From assembly GCF_022370755.2 (NCBI RefSeq), contig NZ_CP092364.2:124001-188000 (forward strand): a stretch of DNA of 64,000 nt, in the 5' to 3' direction. A model generated the notes under the pieces. The model was not told the DNA's origin, did not search any database, and saw only the letters and a list, made by a program, of their open reading frames with translations. Positions 45,639 through 63,440 of this stretch are shown one piece after another. Position 1 is the first letter of the stretch. The number at the start of each line of letters is the position of its first letter. This stretch comes from Mycolicibacterium goodii. Lineage in GTDB: Bacteria > Actinomycetota > Actinomycetes > Mycobacteriales > Mycobacteriaceae. The position numbers and the translations under genes are program-made.

Positions 45639-45801
45639 TATATCTGTGTAACCCGGTGACATCAAGTTACGCCGCGCATGTCACACGATGCACTGCGCCA
45701 CGCGGAGGATGACCGGTAGGATCCGCTCAGCCGTCGAGCGATCTTGTTTGCCCGGCAGCCATCCATCCCCTCGGTTACCCAGACTCGGAGGTCGGGCACA
45801 C

Positions 45802-46215
45802 GTGAACAAACGCAGCATTCTCGGGGTCTCAGCGGTGGTTGCCGCCGGTGCGACCGCATCCCTCGTATTCGGAGCGGGGCTCGCGGCCGCGGCGCCGGAT
45901 GTCGTCGGCGAGACCTACGGGGATGCTGCCTCGGCGATCGAGGACTCGGGAGGTTCCCCGAAGATCGCGGTGACCGTCGGGAGCAAATTGTCGCAGGACG
46001 ACTGCATCGTGACCAACGCGTGGAACGCTCCGACGTTCGAGCACACCGGTGGCGTGGTGATGGTGTCGCTGAACTGCGACGGTGACCACGCGACCGCCAA
46101 GAGCCCGGGGGCTTCGGTCGCCAGCCCGGCAGGCCGTGAGGCCAAGGCCGCCGCCGACGAGGCGGCATCGGCAGAGGAGGCCGTCCTCAGCGAGGTCAGC
46201 ACGCCCGACGAGTGA
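45802..46215 (+). CDS. secreted PASTA-like small protein, copy 1
   Basis: A 137-residue exported protein. The signal peptide ends near GLAAAAPD. The mature part begins PDVVGETYGDAASAIEDSGGSPKIAVTVGS, which reads as one PASTA-like unit, followed by a segment with two cysteines (DDCIVTNAW and SLNCDGD) that probably form a disulfide. It ends in a helical Ala/Glu tail, AGREAKAAADEAASAEE, and STPDE. I use GTG at 45802. A TAGGAT -10 lies about 80 bp upstream. It is the first of three tandem paralogs. PASTA domains bind peptidoglycan stem or beta-lactams in other proteins; here that is inference. Confidence 0.8.
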   Translation: MNKRSILGVSAVVAAGATASLVFGAGLAAAAPDVVGETYGDAASAIEDSGGSPKIAVTVGSKLSQDDCIVTNAWNAPTFEHTGGVVMVSLNCDGDHATAKSPGASVASPAGREAKAAADEAASAEEAVLSEVSTPDE

Positions 46216-46323
46216 CGCTCCGCATTCCCGCGAGGTTCGCCTGATGTTCACGAGCGCTCGGGCGTTCTGCTGGGTAGTCTCCACCCAGATCGACAGCGCG
46301 TATTCGGGGGAGAAGGAGTCACG

Positions 46324-46758
46324 GTGAACGTCAAGAAACTCGTCTTGGTGGGGGCTGCGGTCGCGGCCACTTCTGCCTCGACCGCTCTGTTCGGCGCCGG
46401 AGCGGCTGCCGCCGCCCCGGACGTCGTGGGGCAGACCTATGCGGACGCGTCGACGGCGATCGAGGATTCCGGCGGCACGCCGAAGATCGCGGTCACGGTC
46501 GGAAGCAAGCTGTCGCAGGATGACTGCATCGTCACCAACGCCTGGGACGCGCCGTTCATGCGTGACGTCGGTGGCGAGTTCGGCCACGCCGAGGGCGAGG
46601 TGATGGTCGCATTGAACTGCGACGGTGACCATGCGACGGCCACCCATCCGGGCGCGTCGATCGCGAGCCCGGCGGGACGTGAGGCCAAGGCCGCCGCCGA
46701 CGAGGCCGAGGCCGCCGAGCAGGAACAGCTCGAAGAGGTCAGCACGCCTGACGAGTAG
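46324..46758 (+). CDS. secreted PASTA-like small protein, copy 2
   Basis: A 144-residue paralog of the preceding gene. The signal peptide ends GAAAAAPD; PDVVGQTYADASTAIEDSGGTPKIAVTVGS and DDCIVTNAWDAP are nearly identical to copy 1. It carries an eight-residue insertion (RDVGGEFGHAEG) between the two cysteines. The C-terminal tail again ends EVSTPDE. The start is GTG at 46324 behind GAAGGAG. The 108-bp gap upstream holds a small hairpin (CTGGGT/ACCCAG at 46270-46288). Recent tandem duplication is evident. Confidence 0.82.
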   Translation: MNVKKLVLVGAAVAATSASTALFGAGAAAAAPDVVGQTYADASTAIEDSGGTPKIAVTVGSKLSQDDCIVTNAWDAPFMRDVGGEFGHAEGEVMVALNCDGDHATATHPGASIASPAGREAKAAADEAEAAEQEQLEEVSTPDE

Positions 46759-46911
46759 CCGGGCCCGTTCCCTCTGCCGTTTCGACGGCTAGAATTCTGG
46801 TAGCTCCCGAAGCGCACGGCACGTGCCGTGCGCTGGGGGCGACTGAGAGCACGATCGGCGCTGGCCGTCCCCAATCCGGGAGTGATCACCGGATAGGGGA
46901 GGTCGCGCCAG
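46759..46911. promoter_or_regulatory. structured leader of PASTA-like copy 3
   Basis: TAGAAT (46790-46795) is a very good -10. The predicted leader of about 110 nt contains a perfect 24-bp palindrome at 46811-46834 (AGCGCACGGCAC and its complement), flanked by CTCCC and GGGGG that extend the stem. GGGAGG lies before the ATG. A regulatory leader or a dimer-binding operator is possible. Confidence 0.55.
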
Positions 46912-47346
46912 ATGAAGATTGAGCTCGGAACTGTTCTCGGTGTCTCGACCGCGGGATGCGCGCTGGCACTGTGCGGGGCGGGACCCGCTGCGGCTGTCCC
47001 CGACGTGGTGGGGCAGCCCTATTCGGATGCGGTCACCGCCATCGAGGACAGTGGCGCCACTGCGCGCATCGCCGTCACCGTTGGAGCCCGGTTACCTCAG
47101 GAAGAGTGCATCGTCACCAACGCGTGGGCCACCAGGTCGCTGGTGCCCATGACCGACGACGTCTACTGGGAGCACACCGAGGACGTCGTGCAGGTGGCGC
47201 TGAACTGCGCGGGCGATCACGCCACGGCCACCAACCCGGGTGCCTCGCTGGGTAGTCCGGCTGGTCGTGAGGCCAAGGCGGCCGCTGACGAGGCCGCGAC
47301 GGCCGAGGAAGGCGAGCTCGCCGAGGTCAGCACGCCCGACGAATGA
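46912..47346 (+). CDS. secreted PASTA-like small protein, copy 3
   Basis: The most divergent of the three tandem paralogs (144 residues). The signal peptide ends GPAAAVPD. PDVVGQPYSDAVTAIEDSGATARIAVTVGA, EECIVTNAWATRS and ALNCAGDHATATNPGAS show the shared core, and the tail ends EVSTPDE. An additional AGC-AL-C pair lies inside the signal sequence. The start is ATG at 46912. It has its own promoter and a structured leader, unlike the other two. It ends 3 bp before the convergent TetR gene. Confidence 0.8.
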   Translation: MKIELGTVLGVSTAGCALALCGAGPAAAVPDVVGQPYSDAVTAIEDSGATARIAVTVGARLPQEECIVTNAWATRSLVPMTDDVYWEHTEDVVQVALNCAGDHATATNPGASLGSPAGREAKAAADEAATAEEGELAEVSTPDE

Positions 47347-53951: not shown

Positions 53952-54024
53952 GCCCCCATCGTCTAGTGGCCTAGGACGCCGCCCTTTCACGGCGGTAGCA
54001 CGGGTTCGAATCCCGTTGGGGGTA
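53952..54024 (+). tRNA. tRNA-Glu (TTC)
   Basis: Acceptor GCCCCCA pairs with TGGGGGT at the 3' side; the D-arm, anticodon loop CTTTCAC (anticodon TTC) and the GTTCGAATC T-loop are present. 73 nt with discriminator A. Confidence 0.95.
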
Positions 54025-54059
54025 CGCAACGCGGAAACGCGGAGCACGCAGGAAAGCAA

Positions 54060-54133
54060 GGCCCTGTGGCGCAGTTGGTTAGCGCGCCGCCCTGTCACGG
54101 CGGAGGTCGCGGGTTCAAGTCCCGTCAGGGTCG
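54060..54133 (+). tRNA. tRNA-Asp (GTC)
   Basis: Acceptor GGCCCTG pairs with CAGGGTC; anticodon loop CTGTCAC gives anticodon GTC; T-loop GTTCAAGTC; discriminator G. 74 nt. Confidence 0.95.
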
Positions 54134-54175
54134 CCAGCACGGCGAGGTAACGGTTCGACCGAGCCGGTGCCTTCC

Positions 54176-54252
54176 GGCCAGGTAGCTCAGTTGGTACGAG
54201 CGTCCGCCTGAAAAGCGGAAGGTCGCCGGTTCGATCCCGGCCCTGGCCACCA
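54176..54252 (+). tRNA. tRNA-Phe (GAA)
   Basis: Acceptor GGCCAGG pairs with CCTGGCC; anticodon loop CTGAAAA gives GAA; T-loop GTTCGATCC. Discriminator A is followed by an encoded CCA (54250-54252), unlike the other three tRNAs here. Confidence 0.95.
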
Positions 54253-54656: not shown

Positions 54657-55238
54657 TCAATCGCTGGCGGCGCGTACCGCCACGATCACCGCTACGACCA
54701 GCAGGGCCAGCAGCAGGACGATGACGAGCACCGGCAGCAGCAGGATCGCGACGATCACCGCGAGCAGCAGCAGGGCTCTCGCTGCTCCGCTCAATCCCGC
54801 CCACAAGCCTTTGATCGCGGCCCAGACGGGATTCTTGCCGGACAGCACCGCGCGGATCGCCTCGACCGCCGCTTTCAAACGCGGACCGCCGTTTTCGATC
54901 GCATCGAAGAGTTTGTCCATCCATTCCTGGAGCTGCGCCGTCAGCGCCTGACTGCGATCCCGCACCGCGTTCAGCAGGCGGCGAACCTGGTCCTTCACCC
55001 AGTCGATGGCCCGCTCGAAGATCGATCCTCGTCCAGAGCCTTGCTCACCGGAATCGGCCGTGCGCAGATCGGGTTCGGCTTGCGGGCGTGGTGTGCGCGA
55101 CCGGCCTCCGGGGACCTTGCGCGAAGTGGCGGTCGTCGAAGAGCGGCGACGCGGGGCGTCGGCTGCTGCCGGCACCCGCCGTTTGGTGGGGGTGCTGCGT
55201 TCGCCGGCCCGGCGTCGGGCGTCGTCGCGGGAAGTCAT
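54657..55238 (-). CDS. basic-tailed membrane protein
   Basis: A 193-residue protein. The first 70 residues are disordered and rich in Arg, Ser, Thr and Pro. An amphipathic helical region (IDWVKDQVRRLLNAVRDRSQALTAQLQEW) follows. The last 40 residues are one or two very hydrophobic helices (LLLLAVIVAILLLPVLVIVLLLALLVV). No family recognised. It comes third on the minus strand after CsbD-like and 96-aa genes and likely shares their SigF-type promoter. Confidence 0.7.
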   Translation of the reverse strand: MTSRDDARRRAGERSTPTKRRVPAAADAPRRRSSTTATSRKVPGGRSRTPRPQAEPDLRTADSGEQGSGRGSIFERAIDWVKDQVRRLLNAVRDRSQALTAQLQEWMDKLFDAIENGGPRLKAAVEAIRAVLSGKNPVWAAIKGLWAGLSGAARALLLLAVIVAILLLPVLVIVLLLALLVVAVIVAVRAASD

Positions 55239-55269: not shown

Positions 55270-55560
55270 TCACCGACGACGCCACACCGCGGCGCCGATG
55301 ACGATCGCCGCGCCGACCACCAGCACGATGGCCGGCTGCGATCTCAGGATGCCGGTAGCGCGGGCGACGATTCCGCCGATCGCGGATTGGGCGGCCTCGA
55401 TGGTGTCCAGGGCCTCCGCGGCCGCCGTGTCCGCGTCGTCGATGACGGGTTCAGCGACCTCAGCGCCCAGGTCACCGACATTCCCGACGGTCTCGCCGAG
55501 CGTCTGACCGGTCTGTTCGATCGTCTTGTCGAGACCGTCTTTGTCGTCCGGGGCAGTCAC
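55270..55560 (-). CDS. small tail-anchored protein
   Basis: A 96-residue protein with an acidic amphipathic region (KTIEQTGQTLGETVGNVGDLGAEVAEPVIDDADTAAAEALDTI) and one C-terminal membrane helix (PAIVLVVGAAIVIGAAVW) ending WRRR. The N-terminal repeats recall LEA- and CsbD-like stress proteins. The GTG start overlaps the stop of the CsbD-like gene (GTGA), so the two are coupled. Function unknown; a role in envelope stress is inferred from neighbours. Confidence 0.7.
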   Translation of the reverse strand: MTAPDDKDGLDKTIEQTGQTLGETVGNVGDLGAEVAEPVIDDADTAAAEALDTIEAAQSAIGGIVARATGILRSQPAIVLVVGAAIVIGAAVWRRR

Positions 55561-55772
55561 GGCGTCCTCCGTCCCGGTCCGGCTCCACGATGGTGCACGA
55601 GCCTGTCGAAGGTGTCCTTGACCTTCTCGCCGGCGTCGTGCAGATGAGCCTTCGTCTGGTCGGCCCGGCCGTGATGTTCAGTACCTCGATGGCCAGTGAC
55701 CTTACCGGCCGCCTCCTTGGCCTGGCCGATGAGATGCTGGGCTTTGTTCTTCGCCTTGTCCATACCACTCAT
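55557..55772 (-). CDS. CsbD-like stress protein
   Basis: A 71-residue hydrophilic protein: MSGMDKAKNKAQHLIGQAKEAAGKVTGHRGTEHHG, the helical GxAKExxGKxxG pattern of the CsbD family, whose members are general-stress proteins under SigB in Bacillus. A perfect SigF-type promoter (GTTT-N16-GGGTAT) precedes it, matching that biology. ATG at 55772 is used; an internal ATG (MDKAKNK) three codons on is possible. Confidence 0.82.
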   Translation of the reverse strand: MSGMDKAKNKAQHLIGQAKEAAGKVTGHRGTEHHGRADQTKAHLHDAGEKVKDTFDRLVHHRGAGPGRRTP

Positions 55773-55781
55773 ACGGCTCGG

Positions 55782-55807
55782 ATACCCTGACGCAACCGTC
55801 AAAAAAC
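55782..55807 (-). promoter_or_regulatory. SigF-type promoter of the CsbD operon
   Basis: On the minus strand GTTT (55807-55804), exactly 16 bp, then GGGTAT (55787-55782). This is the full mycobacterial SigF consensus, 9 bp before the CsbD ATG. Confidence 0.75.
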
Positions 55808-55820
55808 ACGGATTCCTTTG

Positions 55821-56156
55821 TCAAACAAGGAGCTTGCGCTGCTTGCGCATGGCCTTGCGGGCCTTCTTGGTGGTGCTGGCCACGGCGTCCGACGATGTCG
55901 AGCGGATCTTCCGGCCCTTCTTCCTGGTCGCCTTCGCCAGATCGTCCGTCGTCTTTGTCACTTCCCGAACGGGGTGAGCAAGCTGGCGCGGCAACATCAG
56001 GCGCACCGCGTGGGCGAAGAGTCGGCCGGCGAGCACGGTGAGTGGAATGCCGAGCGGCAACAAGATCACCGTCACGCACAGCACGACGCCGACAAGGCCC
56101 AACAGCGCGGCGACGATCCACAGCAGGGTGCCGAGCAGGCCGCGTAGTAGTCGCAT
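55821..56156 (-). CDS. small membrane protein, paralog B with basic tail
   Basis: A 111-residue protein. Residues 1-50 (MRLLRGLLGTLLWIVAALLGLVGVVLCVTVILLPLGIPLTVLAGRLF) are two membrane helices, paralogous to the 68-residue protein at 54444. Residues 60-111 form a Lys/Arg-rich cytoplasmic tail (TTKKARKAMRKQRKLLV). GGGAGG lies 7 nt before ATG 56156. A SigF-like GGGTAC element lies 48 bp upstream. Function unknown. Confidence 0.75.
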   Translation of the reverse strand: MRLLRGLLGTLLWIVAALLGLVGVVLCVTVILLPLGIPLTVLAGRLFAHAVRLMLPRQLAHPVREVTKTTDDLAKATRKKGRKIRSTSSDAVASTTKKARKAMRKQRKLLV

Positions 56157-57163: not shown

Positions 57164-57189
57164 GTTTTAGTGATGTGGGTCACGGGTAT
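57164..57189 (+). promoter_or_regulatory. SigF-type promoter of the gas-vesicle operon with CRP-like dyad
   Basis: GTTT (57164-57167), 16 bp, GGGTAT (57184-57189): full SigF consensus. The spacer contains GTGA-N6-TCAC (57170-57183), the core of a CRP site, placed where bound protein would block the polymerase. Initiation near 57196 would give a 92-nt leader to the GTG at 57288. Confidence 0.7.
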
Positions 57190-57287
57190 TAGCACTGAGG
57201 CGCGGGTCGAAGAGTGGCCGGTATCCGATCGGCTGAACACGACGTCCCGAGGTGTCAACTGAACTGAGGCTCGTAAAGGAGACTGTC

Positions 57288-58049
57288 GTGAAATGCGGAG
57301 CTCGCATCGCCATGGGTGTCGCCGGTGGCTACTTCCTCGGCAGGACGAAGAAAATGAAGCTCGCCCTGATGATGGGCGGCTGGGCGGCGGGCCGCCAGTT
57401 GGGCGGTCCCGGGCAGATTCTCGGCCAGGCGAGCAAGGTCCTCGGGCAATCGCCTGAGCTGACCGCATTGACCGACCAGGTTCGGGGACGTCTGTTCGAG
57501 GCGGGCAAAGAGGCGGCGATGGCCGTCGCGGCCCGCCGTGTTGAGGCTTTGACGGACCGCGTGGGGCAACGGGTTGAAAGCCTCGCCGATGTCCGCCGGT
57601 TGAGAAATCTCGGTGAAGAGGACCTCGGCGACGAAGACCGCGACGAAGACCGGGGCGACGACTACGACGATTCCGAAGACGTCGAATCCGGGGACGTTGA
57701 AGCCGTCGAGGAAGAGGCCCCGGCGCCACGCACTCGTCGTCCCCGCTCAACCACTACCTCGCGCGCGCCACGTGCCGCCGGCCGGGCGTCGGGTGGTACG
57801 ACCCGCAGCGCATCCGGCACCGGTCGGTCGGCCCGGCCGTCAGGTGGCGCGTCGAAGGCGTCGCGCGGCACCTCGGGGACTTCCAAGAGCGCCTCGAAGG
57901 CGACCGCGAAGGGCGGCGCGCGTTCACAGCCGGCGAAGAAGGCGGCGAAGAAGGGCACGGCGGCGTCTGCGCGGACACCGAAGAAGGCCGGATCCGGCCG
58001 GCGGGCCGCGCGCACCACACGCACACGTCGGGAGGGTAGCGATGGCTAG
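57288..58049 (+). CDS. gas-vesicle cluster protein, GvpY-like, with basic tail
   Basis: A 253-residue protein. Residues 1-85 hold AMGVAGGYFLGRTKKMKLALMMGGWAAGR and amphipathic helices. Residues 110-145 are acidic (GDEDRDEDRGDDYDDSEDVE). Residues 150-253 are Ser/Thr/Ala/Lys/Arg-rich with AKK repeats, like a histone-H1 tail. By position (first gene, before a GvpZ-like SRPBCC gene) it corresponds to the GvpY of streptomycete clusters; the role is unknown. GTG at 57288 follows AAAGGAG. It overlaps the next gene by 8 nt. Confidence 0.65.
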   Translation: MKCGARIAMGVAGGYFLGRTKKMKLALMMGGWAAGRQLGGPGQILGQASKVLGQSPELTALTDQVRGRLFEAGKEAAMAVAARRVEALTDRVGQRVESLADVRRLRNLGEEDLGDEDRDEDRGDDYDDSEDVESGDVEAVEEEAPAPRTRRPRSTTTSRAPRAAGRASGGTTRSASGTGRSARPSGGASKASRGTSGTSKSASKATAKGGARSQPAKKAAKKGTAASARTPKKAGSGRRAARTTRTRREGSDG

Positions 58050-59247
58050 GCAGGACTCGTCGAGGTCGAACGGCGGTACGGCAACTGACACGTTGCGCGA
58101 TGCGGGACAACAACTGCTCGGTGTCATGTTGCAGCGCGCGGCATCCTCGGCCACCGATCGGGTCGCGGATTTCTCGGACCGCCTGACGAACGTGGCGGAG
58201 AACGGGGAAGGGCTGCGCTCTTTGGTGCGTCGCCCCGATCGACACGACCGCGATGACGGAGACGACGGAGACGACGGCGACGGTGGAGACGGTAAGGGTT
58301 CCGGTCTCGGTTCGATGCTCGGTGGTCTGAAGGACAAGGTTCAGAATGCGCTGGGCGGTGGATCCAAGGGCGGCAAGGGAGGCAAGAAGAAACTCAAACT
58401 CACCAACATCGTCGAGACGCTCGATGTCGGTGTGCCGCTGCGGACCACATATGACCTGTGGACTCAGTTCACCGAGTTCCCGACGTTCATGAAGAAGGTC
58501 GAGAGCGTCACCCAGCCCGAGGACGAGGTGACGCAATGGAAGGCCCAGGTCTTCTTCTCGCATCGCGAATGGGAGGCCACGATCCTGGAGCAGGTGCCGG
58601 ATTCGCACATCGTCTGGCGGTCGAAGGGGGCCAAAGGACACGTGGACGGCGCCGTGACGTTCGCGGCGCTCGCCCCGAACCTGACCAGGGTGGCATTGGT
58701 GATGGAGTACCACCCGCAGGGACTGTTCGAACGGACCGGCAATCTGTGGCGTGCCCAGGGGAGGCGGGCCCGCCTGGAGCTCAAGCACTTTGGCCGTCAC
58801 GCGATGACGCAGACGCTGCTGCATCCGGAGGAGATCGAGGGTTGGCGCGGCGAGATTCACGACGGTGAGGTCGTCAAGACCCACGAGGAGGCGCTCGAGG
58901 AAGAGCAGTCCGGCCGGGGCGACGAGCAGGATTACGAGGAACCCTCCGAGCCAGAGGATTACGGCGACGAGGGTGACGAAGGCTACGAGGAACAAGACGA
59001 GGACGAGGGCGCGGACGAGGACGCCGGGGACTACGAAGAGGACTACCTCGACGAGGATGCCGACGAGGATTACGACACCGAGCCCGACGAAGGCGAGGAC
59101 TACGAGACCGAGGATTACGCAGACGAGGACAACGAGGGCGAGGACTACGCAGACGAGGATTACGAAGACGAAGAAGAGCCACCCAGCCGTAGTCGCGGTC
59201 GACGGACCGTCGGCGCCGGTGGCGGCCGGAGGGGTGGGCGGTCATGA
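58042..59247 (+). CDS. SRPBCC-domain protein with acidic tail, GvpZ-like
   Basis: A 401-residue protein in three parts. Residues 1-110 are a helical and Gly/Lys-rich linker. Residues 112-255 are an SRPBCC (polyketide-cyclase-like) domain: [39 protein letters not shown] and [19 protein letters not shown]. Residues 285-385 are a very acidic tail of Glu, Asp and Tyr repeats, before a basic end. Streptomycete gvp clusters have a similar GvpZ. It may act as a chaperone or lipid/ligand binder in vesicle assembly. ATG at 58042 follows GGAGG. Confidence 0.75.
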
Positions 59248-59690
59248 CCATCACGACGCAGCGGGAAAGTAGCGGCAGCAACGTCGAACGCTATACCGGC
59301 GGAGGATCGAGCGGGCTTGCCGAGGTCATCGAACTGATCCTCGACAAGGGCCTCGTGATCGACGTTTTCGTCCGGGTTTCGCTGGTGGGTATCGAGATTC
59401 TCACGATCGACGCACGGATCGTGGTGGCGAGCGTGGACACGTTCCTGCGGTTCGCCGAGGCCACCAACCGACTCGACCTTTACGCAAAGGGCAAGGGCGG
59501 CAAGGATCTTTCTGAGCTGGCCCAGGGAATGATGGAGGGCGGCGCGAAGGGCAAGACCTCCGGGGTGCTCGAGGGTGCCGTCGAGAAGGTCGACGACCTG
59601 CTCGGTAAAGGGCGGGATCGGCGTGACCGAGAGGAAGAACCCGCGCCCCGACGACGTCCGCGGCCCCGCCGACGCGAGGATGACGAATGA
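59244..59690 (+). CDS. gvpA: gas vesicle structural protein GvpA
   Basis: A 148-residue member of the GvpA/J/M family. The core (about 24-78), [46 protein letters not shown], is the beta-sheet that builds the gas vesicle wall. A 70-residue hydrophilic C-terminal extension ending in an Arg-rich tail follows; actinobacterial GvpA proteins share such extensions. Of the three family members here this one is the best match to the wall protein. ATG overlaps the previous stop (ATGA), and its stop overlaps gvpF. Confidence 0.9.
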
Positions 59691-60418
59691 GCGCCACCTA
59701 CGTCTATGGTCTGATCCGCTCGGACGCCGAGCTTCCCCGGCACCTCCGCGGGCTCGGCCCGTCCGGGCGGGTCACGACCATCTCACATCGGCGGGTGGCC
59801 GCCATCGTGAGCGATCTGCCGGCCGATCGTCCGCTCGGCACGCGTGACGACCTGATCGCGCATGAGCGGGTGCTCGACACTGTGGCGCAACAGTGCGCGG
59901 TGCTACCCATGCGCTTTCCTGCCGTGGTCGAAGAATCGGGTGTGGTGGACGAACTTCTCGCACCGCACGAGGAGCGTTTTCTCGAGGTTCTGACGCGCCT
60001 GGACGGGATGGTGCAGTTCACGCTGAAGGCCCGTTACGAGCAGGACGTCGTGCTGCGCGAGATCGCCGAGGGCGACGACGAGATCATGGCTCTGCGCGAG
60101 CGCGTGCGTAAACTGCCGGAAGACGCGTCGTATTACGACCGGATACGCCTGGGCGAGTTGGTGGTCGGCGAGATGGAGCGCCGCCGCAGCGACGAGGGCA
60201 ACCAGGTGCTGGAGCGGCTGCGACCATATGCCGCGGCAGTCGCCGTTCGTCCTCAGACGCAGCCCGACGAGGTCGTCAACGCCGCATTCCTGGTCGCCCG
60301 TGACCGGATCCAGCCGTTCGACGACGCCGTGGAACAGGTGGGCCGGGACTTCGCCGGCCGCATGAGGTTCCGTCTTCTCGGGCCGCTGGCGCCGTACGAC
60401 TTCATACCGGAAGGCTGA
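59687..60418 (+). CDS. gvpF: gas vesicle assembly protein GvpF
   Basis: A 243-residue GvpL/GvpF-family protein: [16 protein letters not shown] at the start, [13 protein letters not shown], then [44 protein letters not shown] at the end. These proteins help nucleate vesicles. The ATG overlaps the gvpA stop. The gene order A-F-G matches streptomycete clusters, so I name it F and the later copy L. Confidence 0.9.
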
Positions 60419-60420
60419 AC

Positions 60421-60651
60421 ATGGGCTTGATCACCGGACTGTTGACCCTTCCCTTGGCGCCCGTCCGCGGAGTGGTGTGGTTGGCCGAGCAGATCGCGGA
60501 CTACGCCGAGTCGCAGTACTACGACCCGGCGAACATCCGTGCCGAGCTTGAGCGGGTCGAAGAGGCTCGGCAATCCGGCGAGTTGTCGGAGGAGGAATGT
60601 GCCGAGTGGGAGAACGCATTGCTCAGCCGGTTGATGTACCGGCGAGGCTGA
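60421..60651 (+). CDS. gvpG: gas vesicle protein GvpG
   Basis: A 76-residue GvpG: MGLITGLLTLPLAPVRGVVWLAEQIADYAE..., then a helical, acidic part (ELERVEEARQSGELSEEECAEWENALLSRL). This is the usual size and pattern. It starts 2 bp after gvpF. It is a minor assembly protein whose action is not defined. Confidence 0.9.
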   Translation: MGLITGLLTLPLAPVRGVVWLAEQIADYAESQYYDPANIRAELERVEEARQSGELSEEECAEWENALLSRLMYRRG

Positions 60652-60672
60652 GCCACTCAGCGGTGGAGCGCC

Positions 60673-60993
60673 ATGACTGAACACTCCGGGGCAAGCAATG
60701 GGGCACGGCAACACCGACGGCCGCCTCGGCGGCTCGCCGCAGCGGATGTCGCGCGTGCCGCGGTGGCGGAGATCGGCGGGCTCATCGACCACGACGTGGA
60801 GAGCGTGATCGCCGTGCAACGCAACGACGACGGTTGGCAGGTCGGCGTCGAAGTCGTTGAGAGCCACCGGATACCGGACTCCGCCGACATTCTGGCGATC
60901 TACGAGGTGTGCCTGGACGGCGAGGGTGAGCTGTTGTCCTATCGTCGTACCAGACGCTATGCCCGCGGTCAGACGGTCGGGCGGTCACGATGA
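60673..60993 (+). CDS. gvpO: gas vesicle protein GvpO
   Basis: A 106-residue GvpO: a disordered basic N-terminus of about 25 residues and the domain AADVARAAVAEIGGLIDHDVESVIAVQRNDDGWQVGVEVVESHRIPDSADILAIYEVCLDGEGELLSYRRTRRYARG. In Streptomyces gvpO heads the cluster; here it is in the middle. In haloarchaea GvpO is essential for vesicles. Its stop overlaps the next ATG. Confidence 0.9.
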   Translation: MTEHSGASNGARQHRRPPRRLAAADVARAAVAEIGGLIDHDVESVIAVQRNDDGWQVGVEVVESHRIPDSADILAIYEVCLDGEGELLSYRRTRRYARGQTVGRSR

Positions 60994-61334
60994 ACGGCGA
61001 CCTCTACCCGACGGGGCGTTCCCACCAACTCGACCATCGGCAGGAGAGCACGAATCTCGCCGACATCCTGGAGCGGGTGCTCGACAAGGGCATCGTCATC
61101 GCCGGCGACATCCGGATCAATCTGTTGGACATCGAGTTGCTGACGATCAAGATCCGGCTGCTGGTGGCGTCGGTGGACAAAGCCAGGGAGATCGGCATCG
61201 ACTGGTGGGAGCACGACCCGTCGCTCAGCTCGGGCCGTGGTGACCTTGCGCTCGAGAATCGCCAACTGCGGGAACGGATCAGCGAACTCGAGGCGTCCAA
61301 CGGCCATCGGGAAGAAGCACCCCGTGATGAGTGA
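60990..61334 (+). CDS. gvpJ: gas vesicle protein GvpJ
   Basis: A 114-residue GvpA/J/M-family protein: LADILERVLDKGIVIAGDIRINLLDIELLTIKIRLLVASVDKAREIGIDWW (about 23-72), followed by an acidic helical tail. The core is like GvpA but with IAGDIRINLLDIELLTIKIRLL, the J-type wording. It is a minor component that shapes vesicle tips. ATG overlaps gvpO by 4 nt and its end overlaps gvpL by 8 nt. Confidence 0.88.
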   Translation: MNGDLYPTGRSHQLDHRQESTNLADILERVLDKGIVIAGDIRINLLDIELLTIKIRLLVASVDKAREIGIDWWEHDPSLSSGRGDLALENRQLRERISELEASNGHREEAPRDE

Positions 61335-62091
61335 GCACAGCGTCTACCTGTATGCGGTGGGTGATGCGGCGATCGCGGATTCTCTGGGAGAGATCATCGG
61401 TGTCGACGACGTGCCGGTGCGTGCCGTCGTGGAGGGTCCGCTGGCCGCGATCGTCGCGTCCGTGGATCGTGAGGAATTCAGCGAGCAGTCCATCCGGAGC
61501 CACCTGGAGGATCTGGTTTGGCTCGAGAAGCTGGCACGCGCGCACCACGCGGTCGTCGACCTTCTCGCGCGGGAACATTCGATAGCTCCCGTGCGGATGG
61601 CGACGGTCTACCACGAAGACGGGGGAGTCCGCGACCTGCTCCGCAACCGCGGCGACGAGCTGGCCGAGACGCTCGATCGGGTTCGCGGTCGTTCGGAGTG
61701 GGGGGTCAAAGGGTACGCGGCGCCCGACGACGCGATGGCCGATACGGATCCATCGGATGTCCCCTCGGACAAGCCGGGTACCTCCTACCTGATGCGGCGC
61801 CGGGCCGAACGCACGCGTGCCGCACGACGTCGCGAGCACGTCACCGAGGCGGCCGACAAACTTCATCACGAACTGGCCGGACTCGCGGTCGACCATCGGC
61901 TCTATCCTCCGCAAGATCCGAGGCTCACCGGACGCCGCGACGAAATGGTGCTCAACGCGGCATATCTCGTCGACGACGACGGCGCCGAGCGGTTGGCGCA
62001 ACGTGTCGGCGCCGCGAACGGCGAGGAGCTGCGCCTGGAAGTCACCGGCCCGTGGGCGCCCTACTCGTTCACCAGCCTGGGGCAGCGATGA
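61327..62091 (+). CDS. gvpL: gas vesicle assembly protein GvpL
   Basis: A 254-residue second GvpL/F-family protein: HSVYLYAVGDAAIADSLGEIIGVDDVPVRAVVEGPLAAIVASVD at the start, APVRMATVYHEDGGVRDLL, and MVLNAAYLVDDDGAERLAQRV...GPWAPYSFTSL at the end. It differs from the first copy by an insert of charged residues (about 141-170). The ATG at 61327 is the family start; a longer frame is not used. It overlaps both neighbours. Confidence 0.9.
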   Translation: MSEHSVYLYAVGDAAIADSLGEIIGVDDVPVRAVVEGPLAAIVASVDREEFSEQSIRSHLEDLVWLEKLARAHHAVVDLLAREHSIAPVRMATVYHEDGGVRDLLRNRGDELAETLDRVRGRSEWGVKGYAAPDDAMADTDPSDVPSDKPGTSYLMRRRAERTRAARRREHVTEAADKLHHELAGLAVDHRLYPPQDPRLTGRRDEMVLNAAYLVDDDGAERLAQRVGAANGEELRLEVTGPWAPYSFTSLGQR

Positions 62092-62276
62092 CGGTGGCGA
62101 GCATCCCCTCATCGAGGACCGATGACGTCGCGCTGGTCGACCTGCTCGACCGTCTGCTCGTAGGCGGTGTGGTGATCGCCGGTGATCTGACGATCAGCCT
62201 CGCCGATGTCGATCTGGTGCACATCTCACTGCGGGCGCTGATCAGTTCGGTTGGCACCCTGATGGAGCCACCCTGA
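62088..62276 (+). CDS. gvpS: short GvpA-family protein, GvpS-like
   Basis: A 62-residue member of the GvpA/J/M family: ALVDLLDRLLVGGVVIAGDLTISLADVDLVHISLRALISSV. The core is complete but lacks any tail. By position between L and K it matches GvpS of actinobacteria. The ATG overlaps the gvpL stop (ATGA). Its last codons lie in a 14-bp near-repeat that may have shifted the stop. Confidence 0.82.
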   Translation: MTVASIPSSRTDDVALVDLLDRLLVGGVVIAGDLTISLADVDLVHISLRALISSVGTLMEPP

Positions 62277-62298
62277 TGGAGCCGCGCTGATGGCGGCC
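62257..62298. repeat. 14-bp tandem near-repeat at the gvpS-gvpK junction
   Basis: CCCTGATGGAGCC(A/G) occurs at 62257-62270 and 62271-62284, and a decayed third unit (CGCTGATGGCGGCC) at 62285-62298. It offers ATG and TGA triplets in different frames across the gvpS end and the gvpK start. Confidence 0.7.
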
Positions 62299-62589
62299 GA
62301 ACGGCGCGGCCGTATCGAGATGGATCCCGAGGAGGTGGGCCGGGATCTTGGCCGATTGGTGCTCACGATCGTCGAACTGCTCCGCCAGTTGATGGAACGG
62401 CAGGCGCTGCGCCGGGTGGACGTCGGTGACCTGCCCGACGAGACCGTCGAACGGCTGGGGGTCGGCCTCATGCGCCTCGAGGAGGCGATGGAAGACCTGC
62501 GGGACTACTTCGGGCTGCGCCCCGAGGATCTCAACATCGATCTCGGACCGCTCGGTCCGCTGCTGCCGCGCGACCCCGGCCGCGGGTGA
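62290..62589 (+). CDS. gvpK: gas vesicle protein GvpK
   Basis: A 99-residue GvpK: IEMDPEEVGRDLGRLVLTIVELLRQLMERQALRRVDVGDLPDETVERLGVGLMRLEEAMEDLRDYFGLRPEDLNIDLGPLGPLL. The pattern is full length for the family. It starts 13 bp after gvpS. Its stop overlaps the GTG of the patatin gene (GTGA), which ties the lipid genes to the vesicle operon. Confidence 0.92.
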   Translation: MAAERRGRIEMDPEEVGRDLGRLVLTIVELLRQLMERQALRRVDVGDLPDETVERLGVGLMRLEEAMEDLRDYFGLRPEDLNIDLGPLGPLLPRDPGRG

Positions 62590-63440
62590 CGGTCATGTCC
62601 CGCGTGGCGTTCGTACTGGGAGGCGGCGGCGTCCTGGGCGCCGCCGAGGCCGGGATGGCGCTCGCACTGCTCGAGGGCGGGATCCGTCCCGACCTGGTGT
62701 GTGGAACGTCGGTGGGGGCGATCAACGGTGCCGCCCTGGCGGCCGACCCCACGCCGGAAGGTGCCCGCGCACTGGTGAAGTTCTGGGATGAGTTGGGCGA
62801 CCAGGAGGTGTTCGGCGGTTCGCTTCTGCGCCGGGCCGCGGAGGTCCTTCGCAAACCGACGTCGCTGCACGACAATTCCGAACTTCGCCGGCTGCTCCGG
62901 GAATGGCTGCCTGCGCAGACGTTCGAAGATCTCGTGGTGCCGTTCGAGTGTGTCGCGGCCAGCATCGAGCGTGCGCGTGAACGCTGGTTCGACAGTGGGG
63001 ATCTGATCGAGCCGGTCATGGCCTCGTGTGCGCTGCCGGGCGTCCTGCCACCGGTGCGCATCGGCGACGAGCACTTCTTCGATGGTGGACTGGTCAACAG
63101 CATTCCGTTGGACCGGGCTGTCGCGCGCGGCGCGGACACGATATGGGTGTTACATGTCGGGCGTCTGGAGGAGGAACTCCGGGCCCCGCGGTTTCTGTGG
63201 GAGGTCGGTTTCGCGGCGTTCGAGATCGCGCGTCGGCACCGGTTCCACGGAGATCTGGAACGGGTCGGTGCCGGCGTCGCCGTCCATGTGCTGCCGTCCG
63301 GGTTGCCGCAACGGTCCGCGGCGACGTGGTCCAATCTGCGCTACCGCGACCGTCGCCGGATCGGGCGGCGCGCGCAACTGGCGTACGACGCCACCCGCGC
63401 CTATCTGGATGGCCTGCAGGCCCCGGAGTCGTCGCTATGA
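62586..63440 (+). CDS. patatin-like phospholipase
   Basis: A 284-residue patatin. The oxyanion loop is LGGGGVLGAAEAG, the nucleophile elbow is CGTSVGAING (Ser near 42), and the catalytic Asp is in FDGGLVNSIPL. Together they form the Ser-Asp dyad. It should hydrolyse acyl chains of lipids. The GTG start at 62586 overlaps the gvpK stop and the next gene overlaps its stop, so it is expressed with the gas-vesicle genes. It has no signal peptide, so it acts in the cytoplasm or at the inner membrane face. Confidence 0.9.
   Translation: MTVMSRVAFVLGGGGVLGAAEAGMALALLEGGIRPDLVCGTSVGAINGAALAADPTPEGARALVKFWDELGDQEVFGGSLLRRAAEVLRKPTSLHDNSELRRLLREWLPAQTFEDLVVPFECVAASIERARERWFDSGDLIEPVMASCALPGVLPPVRIGDEHFFDGGLVNSIPLDRAVARGADTIWVLHVGRLEEELRAPRFLWEVGFAAFEIARRHRFHGDLERVGAGVAVHVLPSGLPQRSAATWSNLRYRDRRRIGRRAQLAYDATRAYLDGLQAPESSL

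What the first reader, a model, noticed from the sequence alone, without database searches (positions are those of the whole stretch)
57164..63440. Complete SigF-type gas-vesicle operon in a mycobacterium
Ten gvp-type genes in the streptomycete set (Y/Z-like, A, F, G, O, J, L, S, K) form one run of overlapping genes behind a full SigF consensus. Mycobacteria are not known to float; vesicles may serve another stress or stationary-phase role. Only one clear promoter is seen.
Basis: partly seen in the sequence, partly recalled or inferred. Interest (0 to 1): 0.8.

Follow-up and report, generated by a model that had tools for sequence, protein, structure and literature searches.

The report
Stress-controlled gas-vesicle operon in mycobacterium
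This mycobacterium carries an intact set of gas-vesicle genes of the kind known from Streptomyces and its relatives, placed behind a general-stress promoter on a stretch of DNA probably acquired from outside the genus; the genes look maintained, but what they build is still unknown.

Summary
Ten genes in one run (Y Z A F G O J L S K, 57288-62589) are a gvp operon of the actinobacterial type behind an exact SigF box (57164-57189). The ten genes and the lipase show purifying selection against M. goodii. Only 19 such boxes exist genome-wide (reversed control: 1); a second stands before a divergent CsbD gene 1.4 kb away. The cluster lies on a roughly 10-kb block beside a tRNA-Glu/Asp/Phe cluster, missing there from three gvp-less relatives. 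It is one of two separate gvp lineages in Mycobacterium: this one groups with another family (inferred Pseudonocardiaceae), the commoner one with other Mycobacteriaceae (one origin rejected, AU p 7e-58). GvpN was not found over cut-off and GvpC not found; GvpA has a conserved extension. "Complete" thus holds only against the Streptomyces set. Such clusters are known in Streptomyces (SigB-controlled, vesicles doubtful) and Nocardia; M. goodii proteins are already named gas-vesicle proteins. So: a new member of a known kind, most likely making small GvpA shells under stress rather than floats. The co-occurring lipase-acyltransferase pair is a new clue.

The parts
53952..54252 (+). tRNA-Glu, tRNA-Asp, tRNA-Phe cluster at the left edge of the variable block
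   Evidence: ARAGORN; same cluster in M. goodii
54657..55238 (-). protein with a hydrophobic C-terminus, no Pfam family, conserved beside gvp in M. goodii
55270..55560 (-). small protein, no Pfam family, downstream of CsbD
55557..55772 (-). CsbD-like general stress protein; ATG 9 nt after the -10, so probably leaderless (inference)
   Evidence: PF05532; sequence
55782..55807 (-). second SigF box, GTTT-N16-GGGTAT, before CsbD
   Evidence: conserved in M. goodii
55821..56156 (-). small hydrophobic protein; PF13796 match below cut-off
57164..57189 (+). SigF box GTTT-N16-GGGTAT of the gvp operon
   Evidence: conserved in M. goodii
57288..58049 (+). gvpY by position (glycine-rich hydrophobic N-terminus, helix, charged tail)
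   Evidence: no Pfam family
58042..59247 (+). gvpZ by position (START/Bet v 1-type domain, acidic tail)
   Evidence: PF03364; low-confidence model matches that fold class
59244..59690 (+). gvpA, shell protein with C-terminal extension
   Evidence: NF006872 172.7 bits, cut-off 151; 7r1c and 8gbs
59687..60418 (+). gvpF
   Evidence: PF06386; 4qsg, 6l5d
60421..60651 (+). gvpG
   Evidence: PF05120
60673..60993 (+). gvpO
   Evidence: PF05800
60990..61334 (+). gvpJ (GvpA family)
   Evidence: PF00741
61327..62091 (+). gvpL
   Evidence: PF06386
62088..62276 (+). gvpS (GvpA family, nearest to GvpM)
   Evidence: PF00741; best NCBIfam match halo_gas_GvpM, 40.9 bits, below cut-off 109
62290..62589 (+). gvpK
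   Evidence: PF05121
62586..63440 (+). patatin-like phospholipase, overlaps gvpK by 4 bases
   Evidence: PF01734
63437..64000 (+). PlsC-like acyltransferase; continues to 64432 outside the window
   Evidence: PF01553

Best explanation
A working actinobacterial-type gas-vesicle operon under SigF. In stationary phase or stress, SigF transcribes gvpYZAFGOJLSK and, by overlap, the lipase and acyltransferase, together with the divergent CsbD unit. GvpF/G/L and the GvpA relatives J and S, with O and K, nucleate and assemble GvpA into a shell. Without the AAA-ATPase GvpN and the reinforcing GvpC the shells should stay small and give little lift; they more likely serve a stress role (osmotic, desiccation, envelope) than flotation. 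The cluster entered this branch of Mycobacterium from another family of the order and sits in a variable site beside tRNA-Phe. Shown: gene content, the box, purifying selection, two lineages, the variable block. Inferred: SigF dependence, co-transcription, shell formation, small size, stress role, transfer and donor family.
For: Families and intact frames. GvpA core identical to the solved shell proteins of B. megaterium and Anabaena at 40 of 55 and 38 of 54 positions; predicted helix-strand-strand-helix core at low confidence. Review of haloarchaeal work: without GvpO no vesicles, without GvpN only tiny ones (PMC9501494, passages). dN/dS window vs M. goodii 0.02-0.28 for the ten genes, patatin 0.10. 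SigF box: 19 in the genome, 2 of them here 1.4 kb apart, 2 more 2.9 and 4.5 kb upstream of the only SigBFG-family gene over cut-off. Box near the gvpY start within one mismatch in 12 of 14 loci of MYC1, f14 and f15, 0.6 expected from shuffles. S. coelicolor gvp operon is SigB-regulated and induced by salt. Tree and AU tests. Variable block.
Against: Functional vesicles are said to be unreported in actinobacteria (PMC6629963), and the S. coelicolor cluster tested in E. coli is not among those that gave vesicles (PMC10344784; that paper calls such failures unsurprising). The commoner mycobacterial lineage lacks a strict SigF box: 0 of 19 within one mismatch, 16 of 19 within two against 7.9 expected; other Mycobacteriaceae 1 of 5 within one. 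The main text of a M. smegmatis sigF regulon paper names no MSMEG_574x gene (PMC4694148), although MSMEG_5745 is an annotated gas-vesicle gene; its supplements were not seen. No expression data for this strain. The two-lineage tree could also come from ancient duplication and loss. No integration repeat was found at the block.
Confidence: 0.6

Rival explanations
1. Ordinary gas vesicles used for flotation or for holding cells at an air-water interface.
For: A, F, G, J, K, L, O and an M-like S are present; GvpA core about 70% identical to true shell proteins.
Against: No gvpN over cut-off in the genome, and none at E <= 1e-30 in 24 of 26 other gvpK-bearing mycobacteria; no GvpC found; S. coelicolor gvp disruption did not change buoyancy (van Keulen 2005, as cited in PMC5839063).
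Confidence: 0.2
2. The GvpA shell is not gas-filled but a lipid-associated body: the START-type GvpZ, the lipase and the acyltransferase supply or remodel its lipid, under SigF control.
For: GvpZ has a domain of a lipid-transport family; patatin and acyltransferase genes adjoin gvpK here, in M. goodii and in G054, which has the other gvp lineage; the pair occurs in 13 of 27 gvpK-bearing and 6 of 369 other genomes.
Against: No lipid in a GvpA shell is known to me (recalled); 14 of 27 gvpK genomes lack the pair; co-occurrence was not corrected for relatedness.
Confidence: 0.12
3. A relic: transferred genes without function, on the way to loss.
For: Patchy occurrence (27 of 396 genomes); one remnant with part of gvpK only (G182).
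Against: dN/dS 0.02-0.28 in every gene; intact overlapping frames; box conserved in M. goodii.
Confidence: 0.05

Closest known systems
Streptomyces coelicolor gvp clusters (SCO6499-6508, SCO0649-0657)
   Same: Same ten gene names O A F G Y Z J L S K for SCO6499-6508; SigB-family control (here SigF); no gvpN in the passages seen; stress-induced. S. coelicolor sequences themselves were not compared.
   Different: Order differs: here Y Z come first and O lies after G; a patatin and an acyltransferase are appended; divergent CsbD unit.
Nocardia gvpAFGOJLMK cluster (PMC7600791)
   Same: Same order from A to K, S being called M (passages).
   Different: Next to narGHIJ there. Whether it belongs to the other gvp lineage, as the unnamed f1 genera do, was not tested.
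gvp genes of Mycolicibacterium goodii, Mycobacterium sp. URHB0021 and JS623
   Same: M. goodii: orthologous block (GvpL 83%, GvpA 96%), named gas-vesicle proteins by NCBI (its GvpA as 'GvpJ'); URHB0021: GvpL 70%, so named; JS623: only GvpZ seen, 73%, named a polyketide cyclase. Same chromosomal site in M. goodii.
   Different: M. goodii has about 2.3 kb more between tRNA-Phe and the block.
Haloarchaeal, Bacillus megaterium and cyanobacterial gas vesicles
   Same: GvpA shell core; F/L, G, K and further GvpA relatives; O as in haloarchaea.
   Different: GvpN not over cut-off and GvpC not found here; GvpA 148 aa instead of 71-88 aa in the solved chains.

Membership tests
Gas-vesicle gene cluster (general) | GvpA-type shell protein | tested here: met
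   NF006872 over cut-off; 7r1c E 2.6e-20
Gas-vesicle gene cluster (general) | GvpF/L, G, K and two further GvpA relatives (J, M/S) | tested here: met
   Pfam over cut-off
Gas-vesicle gene cluster (general) | GvpN AAA-ATPase (called conserved in all clusters in PMC9501494) | tested here: not met
   best 30.8 bits, cut-off 266.8, in own genome
Gas-vesicle gene cluster (general) | GvpC reinforcing protein | tested here: inconclusive
   no PF01304 match in the ten proteins or the genome, but that search rang in no control genome
Gas-vesicle gene cluster (general) | Gas-filled, pressure-collapsible particles | not testable with these tools
   needs microscopy
Actinobacterial (streptomycete-type) gvp cluster | A F G O J L S K plus Y and Z, in one run | tested here: met
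   Y and Z by position in L084
Actinobacterial (streptomycete-type) gvp cluster | Long GvpA with C-terminal extension (my criterion, from the alignments) | tested here: met
SigF regulon of mycobacteria | GTTT-N14..19-GGGTA box (PMC4694148) upstream of the first gene | tested here: met
   57164-57189
SigF regulon of mycobacteria | A SigF-type sigma factor in the genome | tested here: met
   one gene over the TIGR02980 cut-off
SigF regulon of mycobacteria | Loss of expression in a sigF mutant | not testable with these tools
   no expression data
Genomic island at a tRNA gene | Block absent from the same site in relatives | tested here: met
   G020, G021, G019 have both flanks without it; the fourth, G017, gave no right-flank match within 20 kb; no block protein in the four stretches, M. 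goodii as positive control; no gvpK in the four genomes
Genomic island at a tRNA gene | Flanking repeat of the tRNA 3' end | tested here: not met
   no second copy of the tRNA-Phe end within 115.8 kb
Genomic island at a tRNA gene | Integrase gene | not tested
   not searched for

The most novel reading that the evidence does not exclude
Actinobacterial gvp operons without GvpN and GvpC do not make buoyancy organelles at all; they make a SigF/SigB-induced, lipid-associated GvpA shell, to which GvpY and GvpZ bind through charged tails and whose lipid is handled by GvpZ and, in many mycobacteria, by the patatin-acyltransferase pair. Two separate gvp lineages in Mycobacterium both became tied to that pair.
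Probability: 0.12. Interest if true: 0.78.

Novelty: new member of a known kind. Interest (0 to 1): 0.42.

Why it matters
What gvp genes do in soil actinobacteria is still called unknown in papers on S. coelicolor. A mycobacterium with a single intact cluster, one clean promoter and a well-studied type of sigma factor makes the question testable. Two separate gvp lineages within one genus, and the link to a lipase-acyltransferase pair, suggest a shared use that selection keeps, and point to lipid besides buoyancy as something to test.
Full report
What is there. The window is bases 124001-188000 of a single 6.74-Mb contig. Near its right end, ten + strand genes, Y Z A F G O J L S K, run from 57288 to 62589; nine match Pfam families over the curated cut-offs (eight of them gas-vesicle families, Z a polyketide-cyclase/lipid-transport family) and Y matches none. 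Neighbours overlap by 4-8 bases except at three gaps of 2, 21 and 13 bases. A patatin-like lipase (62586-63440) and a PlsC-like acyltransferase (63437-64432, partly outside the window) continue the run. The genome has three GvpA-family matches, all here.

Parts against known vesicles. The GvpA core is identical at 40 of 55 positions to the B. megaterium shell protein and at 38 of 54 to the Anabaena one; its model has the helix-strand-strand-helix core at low confidence and finds those two structures first. It carries about 70 further residues, whose motif (here [14 protein letters not shown], then an Arg-rich end) recurs across most of the loci compared. S is nearest to haloarchaeal GvpM, below that model's cut-off. 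GvpN is not found over cut-off, nor at E <= 1e-30 in 24 of 26 other gvpK-bearing mycobacteria; the two that have it, G209 and G355, carry a different cluster type with two gvpF-like genes. A GvpC search of the genome found nothing but had no positive control. A review states that haloarchaea without GvpN make only tiny vesicles and that GvpO is essential (PMC9501494, passages). Hence the prediction of small shells.

Promoter. GTTT-N16-GGGTAT lies at 57164-57189, 98 bases before the gvpY start that I prefer. Exact GTTT-N15..17-GGGTAT occurs 19 times in the genome, against once for the pattern reversed. Two of the 19 are in this window, 1.4 kb apart and divergent; the second ends 9 bases before an ATG of a CsbD-like stress gene. 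Two more, at 4089608 and 4091239 on the minus strand, lie 2.9 and 4.5 kb upstream of the only SigBFG-family sigma gene over cut-off (4086050-4086727). Both boxes of the window are conserved in M. goodii. In a 400-base stretch around the gvpY start, a box within one mismatch occurs in 2 of 2 MYC1 loci (the window's lineage), 6 of 8 of family f14 and 4 of 4 of f15, 0.6 of these 14 expected by dinucleotide shuffles; but in 0 of 19 of the commoner mycobacterial lineage (MYC2; 16 of 19 within two mismatches, 7.9 expected) and 1 of 5 other Mycobacteriaceae. In MYC2 a related form, G[AG]TT-N16-GGGTA[AG], is seen in 13 of 19; I chose this pattern after looking, so it is weak evidence. The consensus is in print (GTTT-N14..19-GGGTA, PMC4694148; GGWWT-N16..17-GGGTAY, PMC7693655; passages).

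Distribution and origin. gvpK occurs in 27 of 396 genomes of the genus. Of these, 21 including this one have all ten genes on one strand in one run; three are cut by contig ends (L033, L051, L054); one is a remnant with part of gvpK (L055); two are the other type (L056, L057) (positions there are stop-to-stop, so overlapping genes may list out of order). In a tree of nine concatenated proteins from 45 loci (those with at least five of the nine; L054, L055, L057 and L087 thus left out), the window and M. goodii join four genera of family f14 at support 100, while the 21 MYC2 loci join five loci of other Mycobacteriaceae at 100. Forcing the two mycobacterial groups together costs 280 log units (AU p 7e-58), forcing all Mycobacteriaceae together 224 (p 1e-48); L056 was dropped before these tests. 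Transfer is the simpler reading; ancient duplication with loss is not excluded.

The variable block. Both flanks are conserved in M. goodii, and in both genomes the block lies downstream of tRNA-Glu/Asp/Phe, with about 2.3 kb more between in M. goodii. I examined four relatives in which gvpK was not found: G020, G021 and G019 have the tRNA cluster and, further on, the right flank (from about 69135; pieces from 64406 in G021 and 65196 in G020) without the gvp block, with about 1, 7.8 and 4.9 kb of other sequence before the first right-flank match; G017 gave no right-flank match within 20 kb. None of the block's proteins was found in the four stretches, while M. goodii, as positive control, gave all of them. 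The size of about 10 kb (54.3-64.4 kb) rests on the right edge in G021. Copies of the tRNA-Phe 3' end 4 to 43 kb downstream in G016, G022, G024, G012 and G015 suggest that this tRNA is a general insertion site, but no such copy flanks the block here.

The lipase-acyltransferase pair. Close relatives of both (E <= 1e-70 and 1e-60) occur in the same 19 of 396 genomes, 13 of them among the 27 with gvpK and 6 among the 369 without (one-sided Fisher p 6e-13, not corrected for relatedness). In G269 and G366 the pair is about 650 and 910 kb from gvpK on the same contig; in G054, of the other gvp lineage, it directly follows gvpK. GvpZ has a START/Bet v 1-type domain (PF03364; a low-confidence model matches that fold class).

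What is known. S. coelicolor has two gvp clusters, one with the same ten gene names; its operon promoter is SigB-regulated (PMC5733086); disruption did not affect buoyancy (PMC5839063); [quoted passage not shown] its cluster was tested in E. coli and is not among those that gave vesicles (PMC10344784). A 2022 review does list Streptomyces among vesicle formers (PMC9501494), which conflicts with that. Nocardia has the same A-to-K order (PMC7600791). In mycobacteria, single proteins are already annotated as gas-vesicle proteins. All papers were seen as passages. I found no paper on a mycobacterial gvp cluster in the searches listed under Tried and rejected.

Verdict. The finding is real and was well read from raw sequence; it is a new member of a known kind. 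Added here: the two lineages, the variable block beside tRNA-Phe, the paired SigF boxes, the missing GvpN, and the lipase link. The function remains open, with small stress-induced shells as the best guess.

Noticed in passing
window 55557-55807 (-): CsbD-like stress gene with its own exact SigF box, probably leaderless, divergent from gvp and conserved in M. goodii.
   Followed up: yes
window 57630-58046 and 58909-59244: GvpY and GvpZ tails are strongly charged: basic Y with acidic Z here and in M. goodii, acidic Y with mostly basic Z in the other mycobacterial lineage, but both acidic in several other families.
   Followed up: partly
L056, L057 (G355, G209): Two Mycobacterium assemblies carry a different gvp type with two gvpF-like genes, and gvpN; one of them (G355) is listed with 8% contamination.
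   Followed up: partly
L055 (G182): Remnant with only the second half of gvpK recognised; no other gvp gene found in 15 kb.
   Followed up: no
window 45688-47346 (+): Three tandem, similar, secreted-looking proteins (144-175 aa, shared motif PDVVG) that cross-match in M. goodii.
   Followed up: no
G016, G022, G024, G012, G015: Extra copies of the tRNA-Phe 3' end 4 to 43 kb from the tRNA cluster, suggesting an insertion hotspot in mycobacteria.
   Followed up: no
L004 8885-12511 (-): 1208-aa protein to the right of the block that looks like a carboxylic acid reductase (recalled, not tested).
   Followed up: no
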